Source: Levilactobacillus cerevisiae
GTDB lineage: Bacteria; Bacillota; Bacilli; Lactobacillales; Lactobacillaceae
Length of the DNA: 64,000 bases
Direction: 5' to 3'
NCBI RefSeq assembly: GCF_003946245.1
Contig: NZ_RHNN01000019.1
Coordinates: forward strand, 1-64,000
Part shown: positions 1,255-62,580 of the stretch, piece after piece
Layout: the number at the start of each line of letters is the position of its first letter
How positions within the stretch are numbered: position 1 is the stretch's first letter
Position numbers and translations under genes: made by a program
Notes under the pieces: model-generated
The model's input: only the letters and a program-made list of their open reading frames with translations
Told to the model about the DNA's origin: nothing
Database searches by the model: none

Positions 1255-1503
1255 GGCTATTGTGGTCGCCATTCAACGTTTAGTTATTGACCTGCGCAAT
1301 GTAGGCGTGAATGAGCCAAATTTAGGCTCAGCCGTGGGATTTTCCATGTGGTCTTCTTGGAAAATGGCGACTTTGAAACACGGATCGTGCGGTTCAAAGC
1401 GAGCTGGTAGACCGCTTCACAGGCTACTGGCGTCCTTCCCACAGCGTTCCGGCCTAAATTTGGCGAACGGTAAGCCGGCAGGTCTAAACAATGTCGCCAA
1501 TAC
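1255..1503 (-). repeat. Modular hairpin repeat, copy A (truncated beside the IS110 element)
   Basis: The copy contains both flanking arms (GCCAAATTTAGGCTC near 1316 and CCTAAATTTGGC near 1453) and the full three-hairpin interior. P3 pairs 1403-1410 with 1424-1431 (GCTGGTAG with CTACTGGC) using two G-T wobbles, and P5 pairs ATTTTCCA with TTGGAAAAT. It reads in the opposite orientation to copies B, C, F, I and J. Module 2, which should lie to its left, is missing and replaced by the IS110 end. It lies beyond the whiA terminator. Confidence 0.85.
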
Positions 1504-4664: not shown

Positions 4665-4746
4665 CTAAAAGCTTAATCGTGAACTAAAGATTGAAACTTA
4701 ATTTGGCGCCGTAACAAGCTACATTGTAGGGATATAACGCTGGATA

Positions 4747-5095
4747 TTGGCTATGTTGTCTAAACCTACCCACTGCGTTCGCCAAATTTAGGCTGGAACG
4801 CGGTGGGTACGGCGCCGGTAGCCTGGAGGCGGTCTGCCAACTCGCGGCTGAGCCCAAATTTGGCTCACTCACGTCTACATAGACAGTGACCGATTATCGT
4901 GGACAGAGATTGGTAGGTCAGCGATGATTACATCATTTTCATGGTAAAAAACAATCATAACCGGAGGACCGCTCCCCAGGCCGCAGGCGGTCCCCATAGC
5001 AGCCGGAATCTCTGGCAGCCGCAGGTGGTCATTAACCACTAACTTTGTGGATCAAATTCCTGTTAGCTGGGCCGTTTTAGGCTCTTTTGCACTTC
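4747..5095 (+). repeat. Modular hairpin repeat, copy B (P4-P5 hairpins deleted)
   Basis: Both arms are present (GCCAAATTTAGGC near 4790, CCCAAATTTGGCTC near 4852), but the P4 and P5 hairpins found in copies A, C, F and H2 are cleanly missing. It continues into a shortened module 2 (AACCGGAGGACCGC, CAGGCCGCAGGCGGTCC, GGCAGCCGCAGGTGG) and the terminal GTTAGCTGGGCCG segment. With the terminator at 4636 and the palindromic promoter at 4440, it fills the gene-free stretch between rapZ and the reductase. Confidence 0.85.
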
Positions 5096-7392: not shown

Positions 7393-7565
7393 ATCTGCAT
7401 CTCCTCACAACTCCAGCCAAGTGGCGACCGGTTTTCAACCATTGTACTGGTTTTTCAGCCCGGCGACAAGTTCCACCTGCATTAGAAGGGCGTCCAAACC
7501 GTGAATAGTCAACGATACTCCCCTCTGTAACATTTTGATGACTGCTGGTTGTGCACTAAAGAGTG

Positions 7566-8025
7566 GAAGCCGAAATATCGGCAGCACTGTCTAAACCTGC
7601 CGGCTTACCGTTCGCCAAATTTAGACCGGAACGCTGTGGGCAGGACGCTGGCAGCCTGAGAATCGGTCTGCCAGCTCGCTTTGAACCGCCTAACCCGCGT
7701 TTCAAAGTCGCCATTTTCCAAGCTGAACACTTGGAAAATCCCACGGCTGAGCCTAAATTTGGCTCACTCACGCCTACATAGACGAAGGTCAATTATTCTT
7801 GACAAACGTTGCCAGTCCAACGATGATCACATCAATGTCATATTGTAGAAAAATCTTAACCGAACGAGGACAGAGATGGCCGTACCTGAGACAACGGTAT
7901 TTGTTGGAAACCAGCTTGCGGTGTGACGTGTTTGGCTACAGACAGGCCCCTCAGACCTCAGGTGGTGAATTATAACTAATCTTTTTAGCTGGGGCTTTCT
8001 AGACCTTCTGAACTTTCAAACTTTA
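7566..8025 (+). repeat. Modular hairpin repeat, copy C (near full length)
   Basis: The copy starts with the conserved CAGCACTGTCTAAACCTGCC, then arm GCCAAATTTAG (7614). Hairpin P3 is perfect: GCTGGCAG 7647-7654 with CTGCCAGC 7668-7675. P4 (TTTGAACCGC/GCGTTTCAAA) and P5 (ATTTTCCAAG/CTTGGAAAAT) follow. The second arm CCTAAATTTGGCTC is near 7754. Module 2 is diverged, and the end segment TTTTTAGCTGGGGC closes the copy. It sits between the uvrA terminator and the hdeD-like gene and accounts for most of this gene-free stretch. Confidence 0.88.
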
Positions 8026-8032
8026 CTATGCA

Positions 8033-14266: not shown

Positions 14267-14434
14267 CAGTCAGTTCAGCTCCTTCAATTTTTCTGCGTTG
14301 CTTTAACGGTCGTGGCTACCCTCAGCTGTCTGTGACTGCACGAATGGCCAGGCCGTTATTTCCAACGCAACTCATGTTCCTTTCAGCTTAACACTCTTTC
14401 CGGTGTGAATTCACCTAATGCGCTCTAACTCGAG

Positions 14435-14870
14435 ATTGAAAGTTCCAAAATACTTAATCTGGTCCAGCCAACAATAATTAAAACCACTAAATTAGTCGAT
14501 GTCGACCACCTGCGGCTGCCAGAAATTCCGGCGTCTGTGGGGACCGCCTGCGGCCTGAGGTGCGGTCCTCCGGCTCGGTTTGGAGTCTAAAAAAATTCGT
14601 CAGTCTCCAAACACGTCCCACGCTGTAAGCTGGTTCCCAGCTAACACCGTCGACACAGCTACCTCCATCTCTGTCCTTCTCCGGTTATGATTGGTTTTTA
14701 CCATGAAATTGATGTAATTATCGCTGACCTAGCAATGTTTGTCTACGATAATTGACTACTGCTTATGTAGACGTGAGTGAACCAAATTTAGACTCAGCCC
14801 TGGGAGTTGTCCGACGGCTTTAGATTGTCAAAACGTGCGCCAGATCTAGACAGCGGTCAACCTACAAAAA
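14435..14870 (-). repeat. Modular hairpin repeat, copy D
   Basis: Module 2 is well preserved: CCACCTGCGGCTGCCAG, GGACCGCCTGCGGCC, a GTTTGGAG/CTCCAAAC hairpin around 14578-14611, and the ACG-C-TGT-A-AGCTGG hairpin near 14620-14650. The first arm (ACCAAATTTAGACTC near 14779) is present, but the three-hairpin interior is missing. The remnant ATTGTCAAAACGTGCGCCAG resembles the edge of the prfB-secA hairpin module. It occupies the gene-free stretch between the HD gene and the decayed membrane gene; 14267-14434 shows nothing else. Confidence 0.82.
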
Positions 14871-26693: not shown

Positions 26694-26769
26694 TATAACC
26701 CGATACTGGCATGTTTCAGGATAATTAATGAGGGGGCGAGACTATTTCTGCGCTTTCACGGCTCAGCTG

Positions 26770-27060
26770 AGAGAGCGTCAGTCTATAAAATTAGTGGTTA
26801 ATTGCCACCTGCGGCTGCCAGAGATTCCGCCTGCTGTGGGGAACGCCTGCGGCCTGAGAAGCGGTCCTCCTCCGGTTCAGGTTGTTCTTCAATCTGACAC
26901 ACGTGTGACCCTCGCTGAACTGGAAACGTTTGTCCAATCGAAATTGGCCACAGTTTATGTAGGCATGAGTGAGCAAATTTAGGCTGTGACCATGGAATTT
27001 GGTCCGCCTTTACATTGTCGAGACGTGTGGCAGTCATACACAATGTTGCCAATGTCTTTA
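26770..27060 (-). repeat. Modular hairpin repeat, copy E
   Basis: The shortened module 2 (TTGCCACCTGCGGCTGCCAG, GCCTGCGGCCTGAGAAGCGG) is followed by one degenerate arm (GCAAATTTAGGCTG near 26972). The interior is reduced to TTTACATTGTCGAGACGTG...ACACAATGTTGCCAATG, that is, the two edges of the long-hairpin module without its centre. It lies between the pst promoter and the phoR terminator and explains this gene-free stretch. Confidence 0.78.
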
Positions 27061-31680: not shown

Positions 31681-31922
31681 ACATTGCCGAAACGTGCTTT
31701 CAAAGGCAACTGGTTCCGCTTAACACCGTAAGGAAAATTGCCCAGACCCAGGGTAATTCCCCTTACGCCGTTAATGCTCGCAGTTTAGTGGCGCCTACTC
31801 TACGTTGCCGAAACGTGCTCTGAAGGCCAACTGGTTCCGCTTAACACTGCTAAGCAAATAACCCAGGCCCGGGGTTATTCACTTAGCACCGTTAATGCTC
31901 GCCAGTTAGGCGGCCTTCAGAC
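31681..31922. repeat. Tandem pair of long-hairpin modules (M3) between prfB and secA
   Basis: Two units of about 120 bases (from 31681 and 31802) share CATTGCCGAAACGTGCT, CAACTGGTTCCGCTTAACAC and ACCGTTAATGCTCGC-type blocks. Each folds into one long hairpin. Unit 1: CGTAAGG/CCTTACG (31727-31733/31761-31767) and AATT/AATT. Unit 2: GCTAAG/CTTAGC (31849-31854/31882-31887), AATAACCC/GGGTTATT and outer CTGAAGGCC/GGCCTTCAG (31820-31828/31912-31920). The arms changed together between units. A third copy lies inside repeat J. Confidence 0.88.
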
Positions 31923-31935
31923 CACTCTTTTTAAC

Positions 31936-38224: not shown

Positions 38225-38590
38225 GAATACCAGCAACATTGTCTAGGACTGCCGGCTCACCGTTCGCCAAATTTAGGCCGGAACGCTGTGGGCAGGACAG
38301 CCCAAGCCCAAGAGCGGTCTGGGGCTCGCTTTGAACCGCCTAAACCGCGTTTCAAAGTCGCCATTTCCCAAGAAAACCACTTGGAAAATCCCACGGCTGA
38401 GCCTACGTAGGCAATAAATAATTATTGCGGACAAACATTCACAACCCAGCGACACCCCACTGGGGGACTGTTTCACTGTGATTTCCACGGGTGCCTGAAT
38501 CGCTAACAGCTGCAGAGGACCATTTCCAACTAATTTTTGACTTAAATGTCTGTTAACTGATCTGTTCCAGGTACTTTTGAACTTAGTTGC
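38225..38590 (+). repeat. Modular hairpin repeat, copy F
   Basis: First arm GCCAAATTTAGGC at about 38268. P3 here is AGCCCAAG/CTGGGGCT (38299-38306 with 38319-38326), a different helix from copy C at the same place. P4 and P5 are kept, but the second arm is lost (GAGCCTACGTAGGC). Module 2 is mostly gone apart from the terminal CTAATTTTTGACT...TGTTAACTG part. It lies between yigZ and the shared terminator, so it is probably transcribed. Confidence 0.85.
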
Positions 38591-41510: not shown

Positions 41511-41910
41511 GGACCCATCCAGCTAAGAAAGATTAAAAATACTAGATCAGTCGAGAATTGCCACCTGCGGCTGCCAGAGATTCCGGCGTCTGTGGGGACC
41601 GCCTGCGGCCTGAGAAGCGGTCCTCCGGCTCGGTTTGAAGCCCGGCAAAGAACACCGGTCTCCAAACGCGTCCCACGCTGTAAGCTGGTTCCCAGCTAAC
41701 ACCGTCGACACAGCTACCTCCATCTCTGTCTTCCTCCGGTTAGGCTTGGTACTTTAACATACTGTTGACGTGACTATCGCTGGACTGGCAACATTTGTTC
41801 GCGATAATTGGCAACTGTCTATGTGTGAGTGAGCTACATTTGGGCTCTGTTGTACGATTTGGATTGCCACCAAACCTTCAAAACAGGTGGCAGATACAGA
41901 TGGCAGCCTT
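41511..41910 (-). repeat. Modular hairpin repeat, copy G
   Basis: Module 2 is nearly intact: GCCACCTGCGGCTGCCAG, GGACCGCCTGCGGCC, CGGTTTGAAG with CTCCAAAC around an inner CCGG/CCGG stem, and CGCTGTAAGCTGG/CCAGCTAACACCG, then GACACAGCTACCTCC. The arm has decayed to CTACATTTGGGCTC. The interior is replaced by a short remnant (ACCTTCAAAACAGGTGGCAGA). 41911-42200 shows no gene or repeat I can support. Confidence 0.83.
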
Positions 41911-50629: not shown

Positions 50630-50890
50630 AAAAAGTCCAAAAGCACCTAGAACGGCCCAGCTAACAGAGATTCAATCCACAAAATTAGTTAAGAATTGCC
50701 ACCTGCGGCTGCCAGAGATTCCGGTTCTGATTGTTTTTCAACACGACATTGATGTAACTCGCTGGGCTGGCAACGTTTGTCCATCATAATTGGCAACAAT
50801 CTATGTAGGCTCATCTGTGGGATTTGGTCCTCCAACTTAACATTGTCACAATGTGGGTCAGATGACAAGTTTAGACAGTATCACCAGTTT
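50630..50890 (-). repeat. Modular hairpin repeat, copy H1 (short)
   Basis: It starts with the terminal segment (CGGCCCAGCTAACAGAGATT), then GCCACCTGCGGCTGCCAG. It jumps directly to CGACATTGATGTAA and ATAATTGGCAACAATCTATG, so the GTTTGGAG and AGCTGG hairpins are deleted. The interior is a long-hairpin edge remnant (TAACATTGTCACAATGTG). It lies next to copy H2, separated by a terminator. Confidence 0.78.
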
Positions 50891-51064: not shown

Positions 51065-51450
51065 AGTCTCAAGATACTCAAAACGGCCCAGCTCGCAAAG
51101 ATTCAATCCACAAAAATAGTTGGAAATTACCACCTGCGTCCTGAGGAACGGTCCTCAGGCTATGACTTACTCCTCAACACGACATTGATGTGATTGTCGC
51201 TGGGCTGGAAACGGTTATCCAGAATAATTGGTCACACTCTACGTAGGCGTGAGTGAGCCAAATTTAGGCTCAGCCGTGGGATTTTCCATGTGGTCTTCTT
51301 GGAAAATGGCGACTTTGGAACGCGGGTTAGGCGGTTCAAAGCGAGGTCCAAGACCGCTCTTTGGCTTGGGCCGTCCTACCCACAGCGTTCCGGCCTAAAT
51401 TTGGCGAACGGTAAGCCGGCATATTTAGACAGTGTTGCCAATATTGAGTG
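51065..51450 (-). repeat. Modular hairpin repeat, copy H2
   Basis: Terminal segment and short module 2, then arm GCCAAATTTAGGCTC (51258). The interior is complete: P5 (ATTTTCCA/TTGGAAAAT), P4, and P3 as GGTCCAAG/CTTGGGCC (51345-51352 with 51365-51372), a helix unlike that of copy C but fully paired. The second arm is CCTAAATTTGGC (51402). Confidence 0.87.
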
Positions 51451-58257: not shown

Positions 58258-58770
58258 AAATTATGGGCAGCAGTGTCTAAACCTGCCGGCTTACCGTTCG
58301 CCAAATTTAGGCCGGAACGCTGTGGGTAGGACGCCGCCAGCCTGGAAAACGGTCTGCCAGCTCGCTTTGAACCGCATGAACCGCGTTTCAAAGTCGCCAT
58401 TTTCCAAGCACCCCACTTGAAGAATCCCACGGCTGAGCCCAAATTTGGCTCACTCACGCCTACGTAGACGATAACCAATTATTGTGGCCAAGCGTTGCTA
58501 GTTCAGCGATGATTGTATCAATTTGATGTTGAAGAGCAATCCTAACCGGAGGAGGCCAGAGGTGTAGGTAGCTGTGTCGACGGTGTTTGCTGAGTGAACT
58601 TTATCAGCTTACAGCGTGGGACGCGTTTGGAGACTGACGGTTTCTGTCAGGCTTCAAACCGAGTCGGAGGACCGTCCCTCAGGCCGCAGGCGGTCCCCAT
58701 AGCAGCCGGAATCTCTGGCAGCCGCAGGTGGTAATTTCTAATTAACTTTCAGGTTGTGCCCAGTCCCCAG
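58258..58770 (+). repeat. Modular hairpin repeat, copy I (full length)
   Basis: Both arms (GCCAAATTTAGGC at about 58300, CCCAAATTTGGCTC at about 58438), P4 and a weakened P5; P3 is not well paired here. Module 2 is complete: AACCGGAGGAGGCCAGAGG, GTAGCTGTGTCGACGG, the GTTTGGAG/CTTCAAAC hairpin with inner CTGAC/GTCAG, GGACCG...CGGTCC and GGCAGCCGCAGGTGG. It lies between the recR-operon terminator and tmk and fills that gap. Confidence 0.9.
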
Positions 58771-62002: not shown

Positions 62003-62580
62003 AACCAGCAACACTGTCTAAAACTGCCGGCTTACCGTTCGCCAAATTTAGGCCGGAACGCTGTGTAAGAGTGTGGCTGATGGCGGTTGGCTGGTGAGCA
62101 TTAACGGTGATAAGCGAATAATCCTGGGCTTGGATTGTTTGCTTATCAGTGTTAAGCGGAGCCAGTCGCCATCTGACGCACGTTTCGACAATGTAAAGTC
62201 GGAGCACCAAATCCCACGGCTGAGCCTAAATTTGGCTCACTCACGCCTACATAGACTATCGCCCATTTTGGTGGACAATCGTTGTCAGTTCAGCGATGGT
62301 CACATCAATGTCATATTGAAAAACAATCCTAACCGGAGGAGGACAGAGGTGGAGGTAGCTGTGTCGACGACGTTAGCTGAGTGACTTTCTCAGGTTACGT
62401 CGTGGGGTGCGTTTGGAGACTGTCGTTTTTGGACAGGCTTCAAACCGAGCCGGAGGACCGCACCTCAGGCCGCAGGCGGCCCCCACAGCAGCCGGAATCT
62501 CTGGCAGCCACAGGTGGTAATTCACCACTAATTTTTGCGGATTAACTCCCCATTAGCTGGACCTGTCAATCCTTAGGAAC
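62003..62580 (+). repeat. Modular hairpin repeat, copy J, with the long-hairpin module M3 inside
   Basis: First arm GCCAAATTTAGGC (about 62041) and second arm CCTAAATTTGGCTC (about 62226) flank an interior that is not P3-P5 but an inverted copy of the prfB-secA module. Its stems are GATGGCG/CGCCATC (62079-62085/62167-62173), GATAAGC/GCTTATC (62109-62115/62141-62147) and AATCC/GGATT. Module 2 is complete, with ACGACG...CGTCGT and CTGTC/GACAG hairpins. The terminal TTAGCTGGACC segment is present. Confidence 0.9.

What the first reader, a model, noticed from the sequence alone, without database searches (positions are those of the whole stretch)
7566..8025. A high-density family of modular, multi-hairpin intergenic repeats
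At least ten related elements (A 1255, B 4747, C 7566, D 14435, E 26770, F 38225, G 41511, H1 50630, H2 51065, I 58258, J 62003) occur in 64 kb, all between operons. They share inverted arms GCCAAATTTAGGC/GCCTAAATTTGGC, a three-hairpin interior and a second multi-hairpin module. They contain no gene and resemble in logic the modular BOX elements of streptococci, but the sequence is not one I recognise. If the density holds, the genome would carry several hundred.
Basis: partly seen in the sequence, partly recalled or inferred. Interest (0 to 1): 0.82.

Follow-up and report, generated by a model that had tools for sequence, protein, structure and literature searches.

The report
Folded mini-transposon of lactic acid bacteria
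The repeats are copies of a small gene-less jumping element of Levilactobacillus, Secundilactobacillus and related bacteria, probably moved by an IS4-type enzyme, that carries two mirror-image folded modules kept intact by evolution; what the folds do is unknown.

Summary
The repeat family is real: eleven copies in the window, at least 138 loci in the genome by two strict patterns; the window is three to four times denser than average. It is a non-autonomous DNA transposon (MITE type). Complete copies end in 14-bp inverted repeats (CTAAAGGTTGAAAG) between 7-9-bp target duplications: 34 of 58 exact, 0 of 2000 random pairings; an empty site was found. The same 14-bp end closes a truncated IS4-family transposase gene in this genome and one on a Lacticaseibacillus plasmid, the likely source of the moving enzyme. 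Inside are two homologous ~175-nt modules, inverted, each folding around three hairpins; 49 of 62 pairs covary over four genera. A covariance model finds it in 62 of 301 Lactobacillaceae genomes, 10 of 40 genera; nine public loci are Levilactobacillus or Secundilactobacillus. Complete copies often lie just behind intrinsic terminators: 21 of 34, against 188 of 1200 intergenic positions. No Rfam family matched. What the fold does, probably at RNA level, is inferred.

The parts
7556..8026 (+). Element C with both recognisable ends: left terminal repeat CTAAAGAGTGGAAG (3 mismatches), right end the reverse complement of GTAAAGTTTGAAAG (2 mismatches); flanks ..TTGTGCA / TATGCA.. are a possible decayed target duplication
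7614..7763 (+). Module A of element C: arms GCCAAATTTAGAC / GCCTAAATTTGGC enclosing three hairpins; homologous to the reverse complement of module D
   Evidence: covariance model matches the minus strand at 7607-7766, 58.8 bits, E 4.4e-12
58266..58757 (+). Element I: module A, linker, module D; a terminator-like hairpin of the next gene (58807-58780, minus strand) lies just outside its right end (the scan as a whole found 9 such sites against 6.7 in shuffles)
58548..58730 (+). Module D of element I (covariance model R1, 197 bits, E 8.9e-46)
62008..62560 (+). Element J; hairpins of module A replaced by a 139-nt unit (62067-62205); right end near a terminator-like hairpin at ffs (62635-62610)
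1279..1498 (-). Element A, 5' half (module A)
4684..5070 (+). Element B: left terminal repeat CTAAAGATTGAAAC at 4684 (2 mismatches), parts of module A, linker and module D, with internal hairpins deleted
14464..14808 (-). Element D: linker side plus module D (14507-14682, 191.7 bits); outer end resembles the terminal repeat at 14429 (3 mismatches)
26764..27000 (-). Element E: linker part plus truncated module D
38233..38559 (+). Element F: module A plus outer part of module D
41519..41860 (-). Element G: linker part plus module D (41562-41737, 206.1 bits)
50657..50824 (-). Element H1: fragment (linker part plus outer end)
51089..51439 (-). Element H2: module A, linker and outer end

Best explanation
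It is a non-autonomous DNA transposon (MITE type), mostly 500-640 bp when complete. SHOWN: its ends are 14-bp inverted repeats, CTAAAGGTTGAAAG ... CTTTCAACCTTTAG. It makes 7-9-bp target duplications, has an empty orthologous site and carries no conserved reading frame. Its complete copies lie just behind intrinsic terminators more often than chance. SHOWN: the identical 14-bp end stands beside the 3' end of truncated IS4-family transposase genes in this genome and on a Lacticaseibacillus plasmid. INFERRED: such a transposase moves the element in trans. SHOWN: inside each end is a homologous ~175-nt module, the two modules inverted, each folding into a junction with three inner hairpins, kept by compensatory changes over four genera. 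Copies then lose hairpins, modules and terminal repeats, which gives the mosaic seen in the window. INFERRED (about 0.35): the modules work as RNA. A transcript reading in from either side always contains the far module in its sense orientation, so the element behaves alike in both directions. A folded tail could block read-through or decay and make the insertion harmless or useful behind a gene.
For: Ends: 13 of 82 two-ended profile hits carry both repeats within 2 edits. In G320, another genus, 138 hits of the repeat against 1 of the reversed-pattern control. Of 58 copies with both repeats, 34 have an exact 7-9-bp duplication and 6 more differ by one base in 8; 0 of 2000 random pairings were exact. 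Empty site: G030 reads TTTGTTTGATAGTTATATTG, where G003 and G025 hold the element between TTTGATA-type repeats. A ~605-bp gap in G003 faces 16-18 bp in two relatives. Enzyme: in the window's genome (L346) an exact repeat at 1174 lies 64 nt from the stop codon of a 313-aa frame whose residues 34-311 match NCBIfam NF049925, IS4 family transposase, 285.9 bits (cut-off 250). On plasmid NZ_CP080339 of Lacticaseibacillus paracasei a 71.5% identical stretch also ends at an exact repeat. G320 keeps the last 25 residues (68% identical) beside an exact repeat. Intact relatives have ends CTGAAACTTGAAAG (L344 with one end CTTAAACTTGAAAG; L396). Fold: 29 of 53 pairs with double changes in 46 copies; on 42 copies (26 Levilactobacillus, 16 from three other genera) 94.4% of cells pair (shuffled 76.1), 49 of 62 pairs change on both sides, 468 against 125 double-change cells, slid controls pair 36-42%. 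G-U 132 against A-C 38 cells. Inverted homology. No coding: no frame open in more than 26 of 78 copies, lengths even modulo 3. Terminators: 21 of 34 against 188 of 1200. Of 139 placed copies: convergent 52, divergent 9, tandem sense 34, antisense 44.
Against: No intact IS with the exact 14-bp repeat at both ends was found; the transposase copies beside exact ends are truncated, and the element shares little more than these 14 bp with them. G320, rich in recent copies, has no IS4-type (PF01609) or IS256-type (PF00872) match, only the 25-residue remnant. The intact relatives L344, L396 and L397 show no exact 6-9-bp duplication at the ends tried. In the window's own genome only 2 copies have both repeats within 2 substitutions, so mobility rests on relatives. 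18 of 58 two-ended copies show no duplication. The strand asymmetry is weaker in a first count over the genus (344 against 236; own genome 105 against 86); by module it is 270 to 82 in D, 169 to 87 in A with 96 of the 169 from two pairs, and reversed (9 to 17) in the two outer pairs. By pairs affected it is 39 against 29 in D and 28 against 30 in A. Modules are only modestly better conserved than flanks between species (0.934-0.975 against 0.885-0.940 in G014/G029; one G003/G025 pair reversed, 0.819 against 0.847). No expression data.
Confidence: 0.88

Rival explanations
1. An ordinary neutral MITE. The perfect hairpins are a by-product of palindromes corrected by template switching or gene conversion, and no selection acts on the fold.
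For: Copies lose hairpins and modules freely; gene orientation is not favoured (44 against 34); conservation above flanks is modest. A few hairpin variants recur in many copies of one genome.
Against: Template switching does not explain unpaired stretches conserved across genera or the G-U excess over A-C (132 to 38). 49 of 62 pairs show double changes at 64% mean identity.
Confidence: 0.27
2. The module is a host-useful RNA or 3'-end element that rode in on a MITE and was kept where it helps neighbouring genes.
For: Modules seem to outlast the ends: in the window's genome 22 repeat hits within 1 mismatch (3 in controls) against 115 module-D hits within 3 of a longer pattern (the two stringencies differ). 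Copies lie near gene ends and between convergent genes. Solo 3' modules exist.
Against: Orthologous sites differ between species in presence, orientation and composition, so no site is strictly required. Insertion behind terminators alone would give the 3'-end bias.
Confidence: 0.3
3. The fold acts as single-stranded DNA in replication or transposition, as hairpins do for IS200/IS605-type elements.
For: The strand asymmetry fits ssDNA as well as RNA; an inverted pair of modules sits at the two ends.
Against: The ends match an IS4-family transposase, a DDE enzyme expected to work on double strands (recalled); terminal repeats and target duplications are not IS200/IS605 features (recalled).
Confidence: 0.08
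4. It belongs to a known bacterial repeat family such as BOX or REP/REPIN.
For: Modular, intergenic, over a hundred copies, inverted pairing (REPIN-like).
Against: Terminal repeats and target duplications differ from REP (recalled), modules are ~175 nt; no match in Rfam; four of its sequences are in no held paper. BOX and REP sequences were not aligned to it.
Confidence: 0.03

Closest known systems
MITEs (e.g. QMITE2 of Coxiella; Nezha of cyanobacteria)
   Same: Short, gene-less, terminal inverted repeats, 7-9-bp direct repeats (QMITE2), intergenic, folded transcript predicted (passages of PMC10969869 and PMC3049150)
   Different: G+C-rich inside, not AT-rich; two homologous inverted folded modules whose structure covaries across genera
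IS4-family insertion sequences of the NCBIfam NF049925 type
   Same: Identical 14-bp end at truncated copies (L346, L394); related ends CTGAAACTTGAAAG at intact relatives L344 and L396
   Different: Carry a transposase gene and lack the folded modules; beyond the 14 bp the subterminal sequences differ
BOX elements of streptococci
   Same: Composite, modular, intergenic, predicted RNA fold (passages of PMC3049150)
   Different: Here two inverted homologous modules, terminal repeats and target duplications; no tandem array of a middle module was seen
REP / REPIN (BIME) elements
   Same: Inverted hairpin units, intergenic, over 100 copies (abstract of PMC2817692 in search listings)
   Different: Modules of ~175 nt with three hairpins; target duplications present
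IStrons (group I intron plus IS)
   Same: A structured RNA combined with a DNA transposon, proposed to make insertion harmless (abstract of PMC4227781 in search listing)
   Different: No ribozyme recognised (no Rfam match) and no transposase inside the element
Group IIC introns
   Same: Insertion behind intrinsic terminators (recalled)
   Different: No Rfam match to intron domains; target duplications present

Membership tests
MITE | Terminal inverted repeats | tested here: met
   CTAAAGGTTGAAAG ends; 138 hits against 1 control in G320, 58 two-ended copies
MITE | Target-site duplication | tested here: met
   34 of 58 exact 7-9 bp, 0 of 2000 random pairings; empty site
MITE | No transposase gene, small size | tested here: met
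   201-866 bp, 38 of 58 between 500 and 639; no conserved frame
MITE | Ends shared with a transposase-bearing insertion sequence | tested here: met
   Exact 14-bp end beside truncated IS4-family transposase genes in L346 and L394, remnant in L364. Limit: one end each, no intact copy with both exact ends
MITE | AT-rich | tested here: not met
   Modules G+C 0.46-0.73, mostly about 0.6. The review passage calls AT-richness typical, not obligatory; PMC3049150 lists it among the characters
BOX | boxA and boxC with variable tandem boxB | tested here: inconclusive
   Modular loss seen, no tandem middle unit seen; BOX sequences were not aligned
REP/REPIN | 20-40-nt hairpin unit moved by RAYT without target duplication (recalled) | tested here: not met
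   ~175-nt modules and target duplications; RAYT genes not searched
Rfam families | Score above gathering threshold | tested here: not met
   Window: only SRP RNA; six loci at E up to 5: none of the 17 weak matches lies on the modules at 1501-1680

The most novel reading that the evidence does not exclude
A new class of large structured RNA (or ssDNA) motif, spread in over a hundred copies per genome by an IS4-type transposase that lands behind intrinsic terminators. Each element carries the motif twice in mirror image, so that transcripts arriving from either side end in a sense copy: a mobile, direction-neutral transcript-end device.
Probability: 0.3. Interest if true: 0.88.

Novelty: new variant of a known kind. 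Interest (0 to 1): 0.72.

Why it matters
Bacterial MITEs are seen mostly as AT-rich hairpin debris of insertion sequences. This one carries a ~175-nt three-hairpin module whose pairs covary across genera, which points to selection on a folded single strand. It gives a testable case of structured nucleic acid riding on, and perhaps serving, a DNA transposon. It also accounts for part of the intergenic DNA of these food bacteria, and it points to an IS4-type transposase that may aim behind transcription terminators.

Tried and rejected
Moving enzyme. Three SDR-gene loci flanked by inverted modules (L102, L104, L107; L104 checked) carry an oxidoreductase, not a transposase. A 2.1-kb repeat-bounded stretch in G005 (L362) is a copy interrupted by an IS3-type element (types by eye). 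Repeat lists were read by eye for inverted pairs 1-3 kb apart: G022 85 of 85 places, G320 100 of 138, G005 50 of 74; G022 is in about 120 contigs, so copies at contig ends could be missed. Of 27 G320 loci scanned, 25 have a profile hit; L364 and L380 have none. IS256-type: 0 in G320, three loci scanned without repeats. IS4-type: six genomes, none in G028, G010, G320. Of the 24 IS4-type loci scanned, three carry a single repeat within 2 substitutions: L344, L346, L351; I passed over L346 at first and found its meaning on rechecking. L351's belongs to a copy of the element. Because of this the confidence rose from 0.85 to 0.88, the ssDNA rival fell from 0.15 to 0.08 and the neutral rival moved from 0.25 to 0.27.

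Coding. A start-like GGAGG..ATG in module D lies in a paired stretch; frames are not conserved. Plasmids and phages: no blastn match of the element at E 1e-5 (plasmids two queries, phages one), although plasmids do carry relatives of the transposase (92 records). Literature: no held paper has the four sequences tried, none joins Levilactobacillus with miniature inverted-repeat, other word searches listed nothing fitting. One passage of PMC2267715 was seen. Not in print is claimed only for these searches of open-licence papers. The first alignment mixed strands and was redone. A first conservation test mixed paralogous matches and was replaced by colinear mapping.

Rows dropped: one full copy of unassigned genome (67 of 68 kept); 96 full hits collapsed to 68 distinct; orthologous-site loci L159-L218 left out; poorly supported pairs skipped; 22 of 34 copies without a clear T-tract side left out of the side count. 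Gene context uses a simple ORF caller (90 codons and more). The family and order scans scored only 6-8 candidates per genome with strict filters, so negatives are soft.

Full report
OBSERVATION. The repeat family is real. The arm sequence occurs 17 times within two mismatches (2.2 expected), and all eleven listed sites match a profile built from 24 full-length copies of the genome. Two strict patterns give 84 hits (5' arm) and 115 hits (3' module) in the 3.375-Mb genome, none with the reversed control pattern. The 84 and the 100 listed 3' hits make 138 loci. The window is about three to four times denser than the mean, so the several-hundred estimate is not supported as stated.

ANATOMY. The core is 5'-[module A]-linker-[module D]-3'. 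Each module is a long stem closing three hairpins. Module A is a diverged inverted homologue of module D: profile and covariance-model hits of D fall on the opposite strand of A. In some other species, of this and other genera, both halves match the D model strongly, in inverted pairs 120-374 nt apart (L263, L266, L267, L273, L274, L278). Window copies are mosaics in which whole hairpins or modules are missing. Element J and three other copies carry a 139-nt unit in place of module-A hairpins.

ENDS AND MOBILITY. Outside the modules lie tails that end in CTAAAGGTTGAAAG / CTTTCAACCTTTAG. In G320, a genome of another genus, this repeat occurs 138 times against 1 control, with many pairs about 540 bp apart. 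Of 19 G320 loci fetched for such pairs (L290-L308), 18 show 7-9-bp flanking duplications, three of them with one mismatch. Over 58 two-ended copies from the loci used, 34 are exact and 6 more have one mismatch, against 0 exact and 0.8% overall in 2000 random pairings. One site is empty in G030 and filled, with duplication, in G003 and G025. The same empty-site sequence stands in the window just after 58151. Element C can be traced to both decayed ends, 7556-8026. The dnaX-ffs gap differs between species in presence, orientation and content (30 loci from 34 genomes). Decay by deletion is seen too.

THE MOVING ENZYME. In the window's own genome (L346) an exact 14-bp repeat lies 64 nt from the stop codon of a 313-aa frame that matches IS4-family transposases (NF049925, profile positions 165-443 of 449, 285.9 bits, cut-off 250; Pfam DDE_Tnp_1 49.3 bits). 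Its front part is missing. On a Lacticaseibacillus paracasei plasmid a 71.5% identical remnant also ends at an exact repeat. G320 keeps the last 25 residues at 68% identity beside an exact repeat, and a G010 contig starts inside a similar end. Intact relatives, L344 in the own genome (484 aa) and L396 on a Levilactobacillus brevis plasmid, have ends CTGAAACTTGAAAG (one end of L344 reads CTTAAACTTGAAAG) around 1562 bp, without an exact duplication at the ends tried. An IS4-type transposase acting in trans is therefore likely. It is not shown: no intact element with both exact ends was found, and beyond the 14 bp the IS ends and the element's tails differ.

TARGETS. In 34 copies with an exact duplication, T content peaks 11-15 nt outside the element (0.56 and 0.60). 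A hairpin plus T tract points at the insertion in 21 of 34, against 98 of 1000 random positions and 188 of 1200 positions outside long ORFs. Of 139 placed copies, 52 lie between convergent and 9 between divergent genes; tandem copies are 34 sense and 44 antisense. Where one side clearly has the T tract (12 of 34), it is the A side in 6 and the D side in 6. The element thus seems to land behind terminators in either orientation.

FOLD. On 42 copies, 26 from Levilactobacillus and 16 from three other genera (mean identity 0.64), 94.4% of cells form standard pairs, 49 of 62 pairs have double changes, and there are 468 double-change cells against 125 in shuffles; 0 of 500 shuffles reach any measure. 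The structure was predicted from this alignment, which favours it over the slid controls, but the double changes stand. G-U cells exceed A-C cells 132 to 38. In the 67 copies of one genus the ratio is 270 to 82 in D; in A it is 169 to 87, mostly from two pairs, and in the two outer pairs 9 to 17. An earlier count with other criteria gave 344 to 236 over all and 105 to 86 in the own genome. This points to one folded strand, RNA or ssDNA, for D, and leaves A open.

DISTRIBUTION. blastn finds the element in 26 of 35 same-genus genomes, own included. The model adds three of the nine negatives, G018, G021 and G033; G004 stayed negative. Of 301 family genomes 62 are positive, 48 of them outside the genus, in 10 of 40 genera in all. 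In 395 genomes of the order, 15 are positive; 14 are in the same family and the one outside has a single weak match, E 2.7e-4. A pattern scan named nine loci, all nine confirmed by the model: Levilactobacillus mulengensis, lanxiensis and humaensis, and Secundilactobacillus angelensis, silagincola, mixtipabuli, silagei and pentosiphilus. A shared 1000-mer ties G012 to L. humaensis, which names the window's genus.

MECHANISM. I commit to an RNA-level role of the modules at about 0.35: a direction-neutral tail structure behind genes. Rivals are a host-useful RNA kept at some sites, no role, or an ssDNA role in transposition, which the IS4-type ends make less likely. The modules seem to outlive the ends in the window's genome: 22 repeat hits within one mismatch against 115 module hits, at different stringencies. 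This favours a role after insertion, but conservation above flanks between species is modest.

KNOWN KINDS. By the passages read (PMC10969869, PMC3049150), terminal repeats, duplications, lack of genes and ends shared with a transposase make it a MITE; the AT-rich habit is not met. It works in part like BOX (modular), REPIN (inverted pair) and IStrons (RNA with transposon), without being shown to belong to any.

Noticed in passing
62067-62205, 31681-31929: A second ~140-nt intergenic repeat; its solo copies here are 76-80% identical and it recurs in several relatives. It sits inside element J and three other copies (L030, L057, L058) in place of hairpins, and a related unit is a polymorphic insert near ffs in G016 flanked by near-identical 13-mers.
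   Followed up: partly
L102, L104, L107: A 289-aa short-chain dehydrogenase gene flanked on both sides by inverted D modules in three species, ~1.1 kb between modules; could be a composite unit or an old coincidence.
   Followed up: partly
L362 (G005): An IS3-type element with two ORFs (type by eye) inserted inside a copy of the family.
   Followed up: partly
L289 (G320 C5:241800-246700): Two copies of the element flank a gene set with deacetylase-like and glycosyltransferase-like ORFs, names by eye only.
   Followed up: no
L385, L388 (G320): Internally deleted copies of 193-272 bp keep both terminal repeats and only tails or part of one module.
   Followed up: no
L344 757-2318 (own genome, C37): An intact IS4-family element, 484-aa transposase, ends CTGAAACTTGAAAG / CTTAAACTTGAAAG, a relative of the likely parent.
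   Followed up: partly
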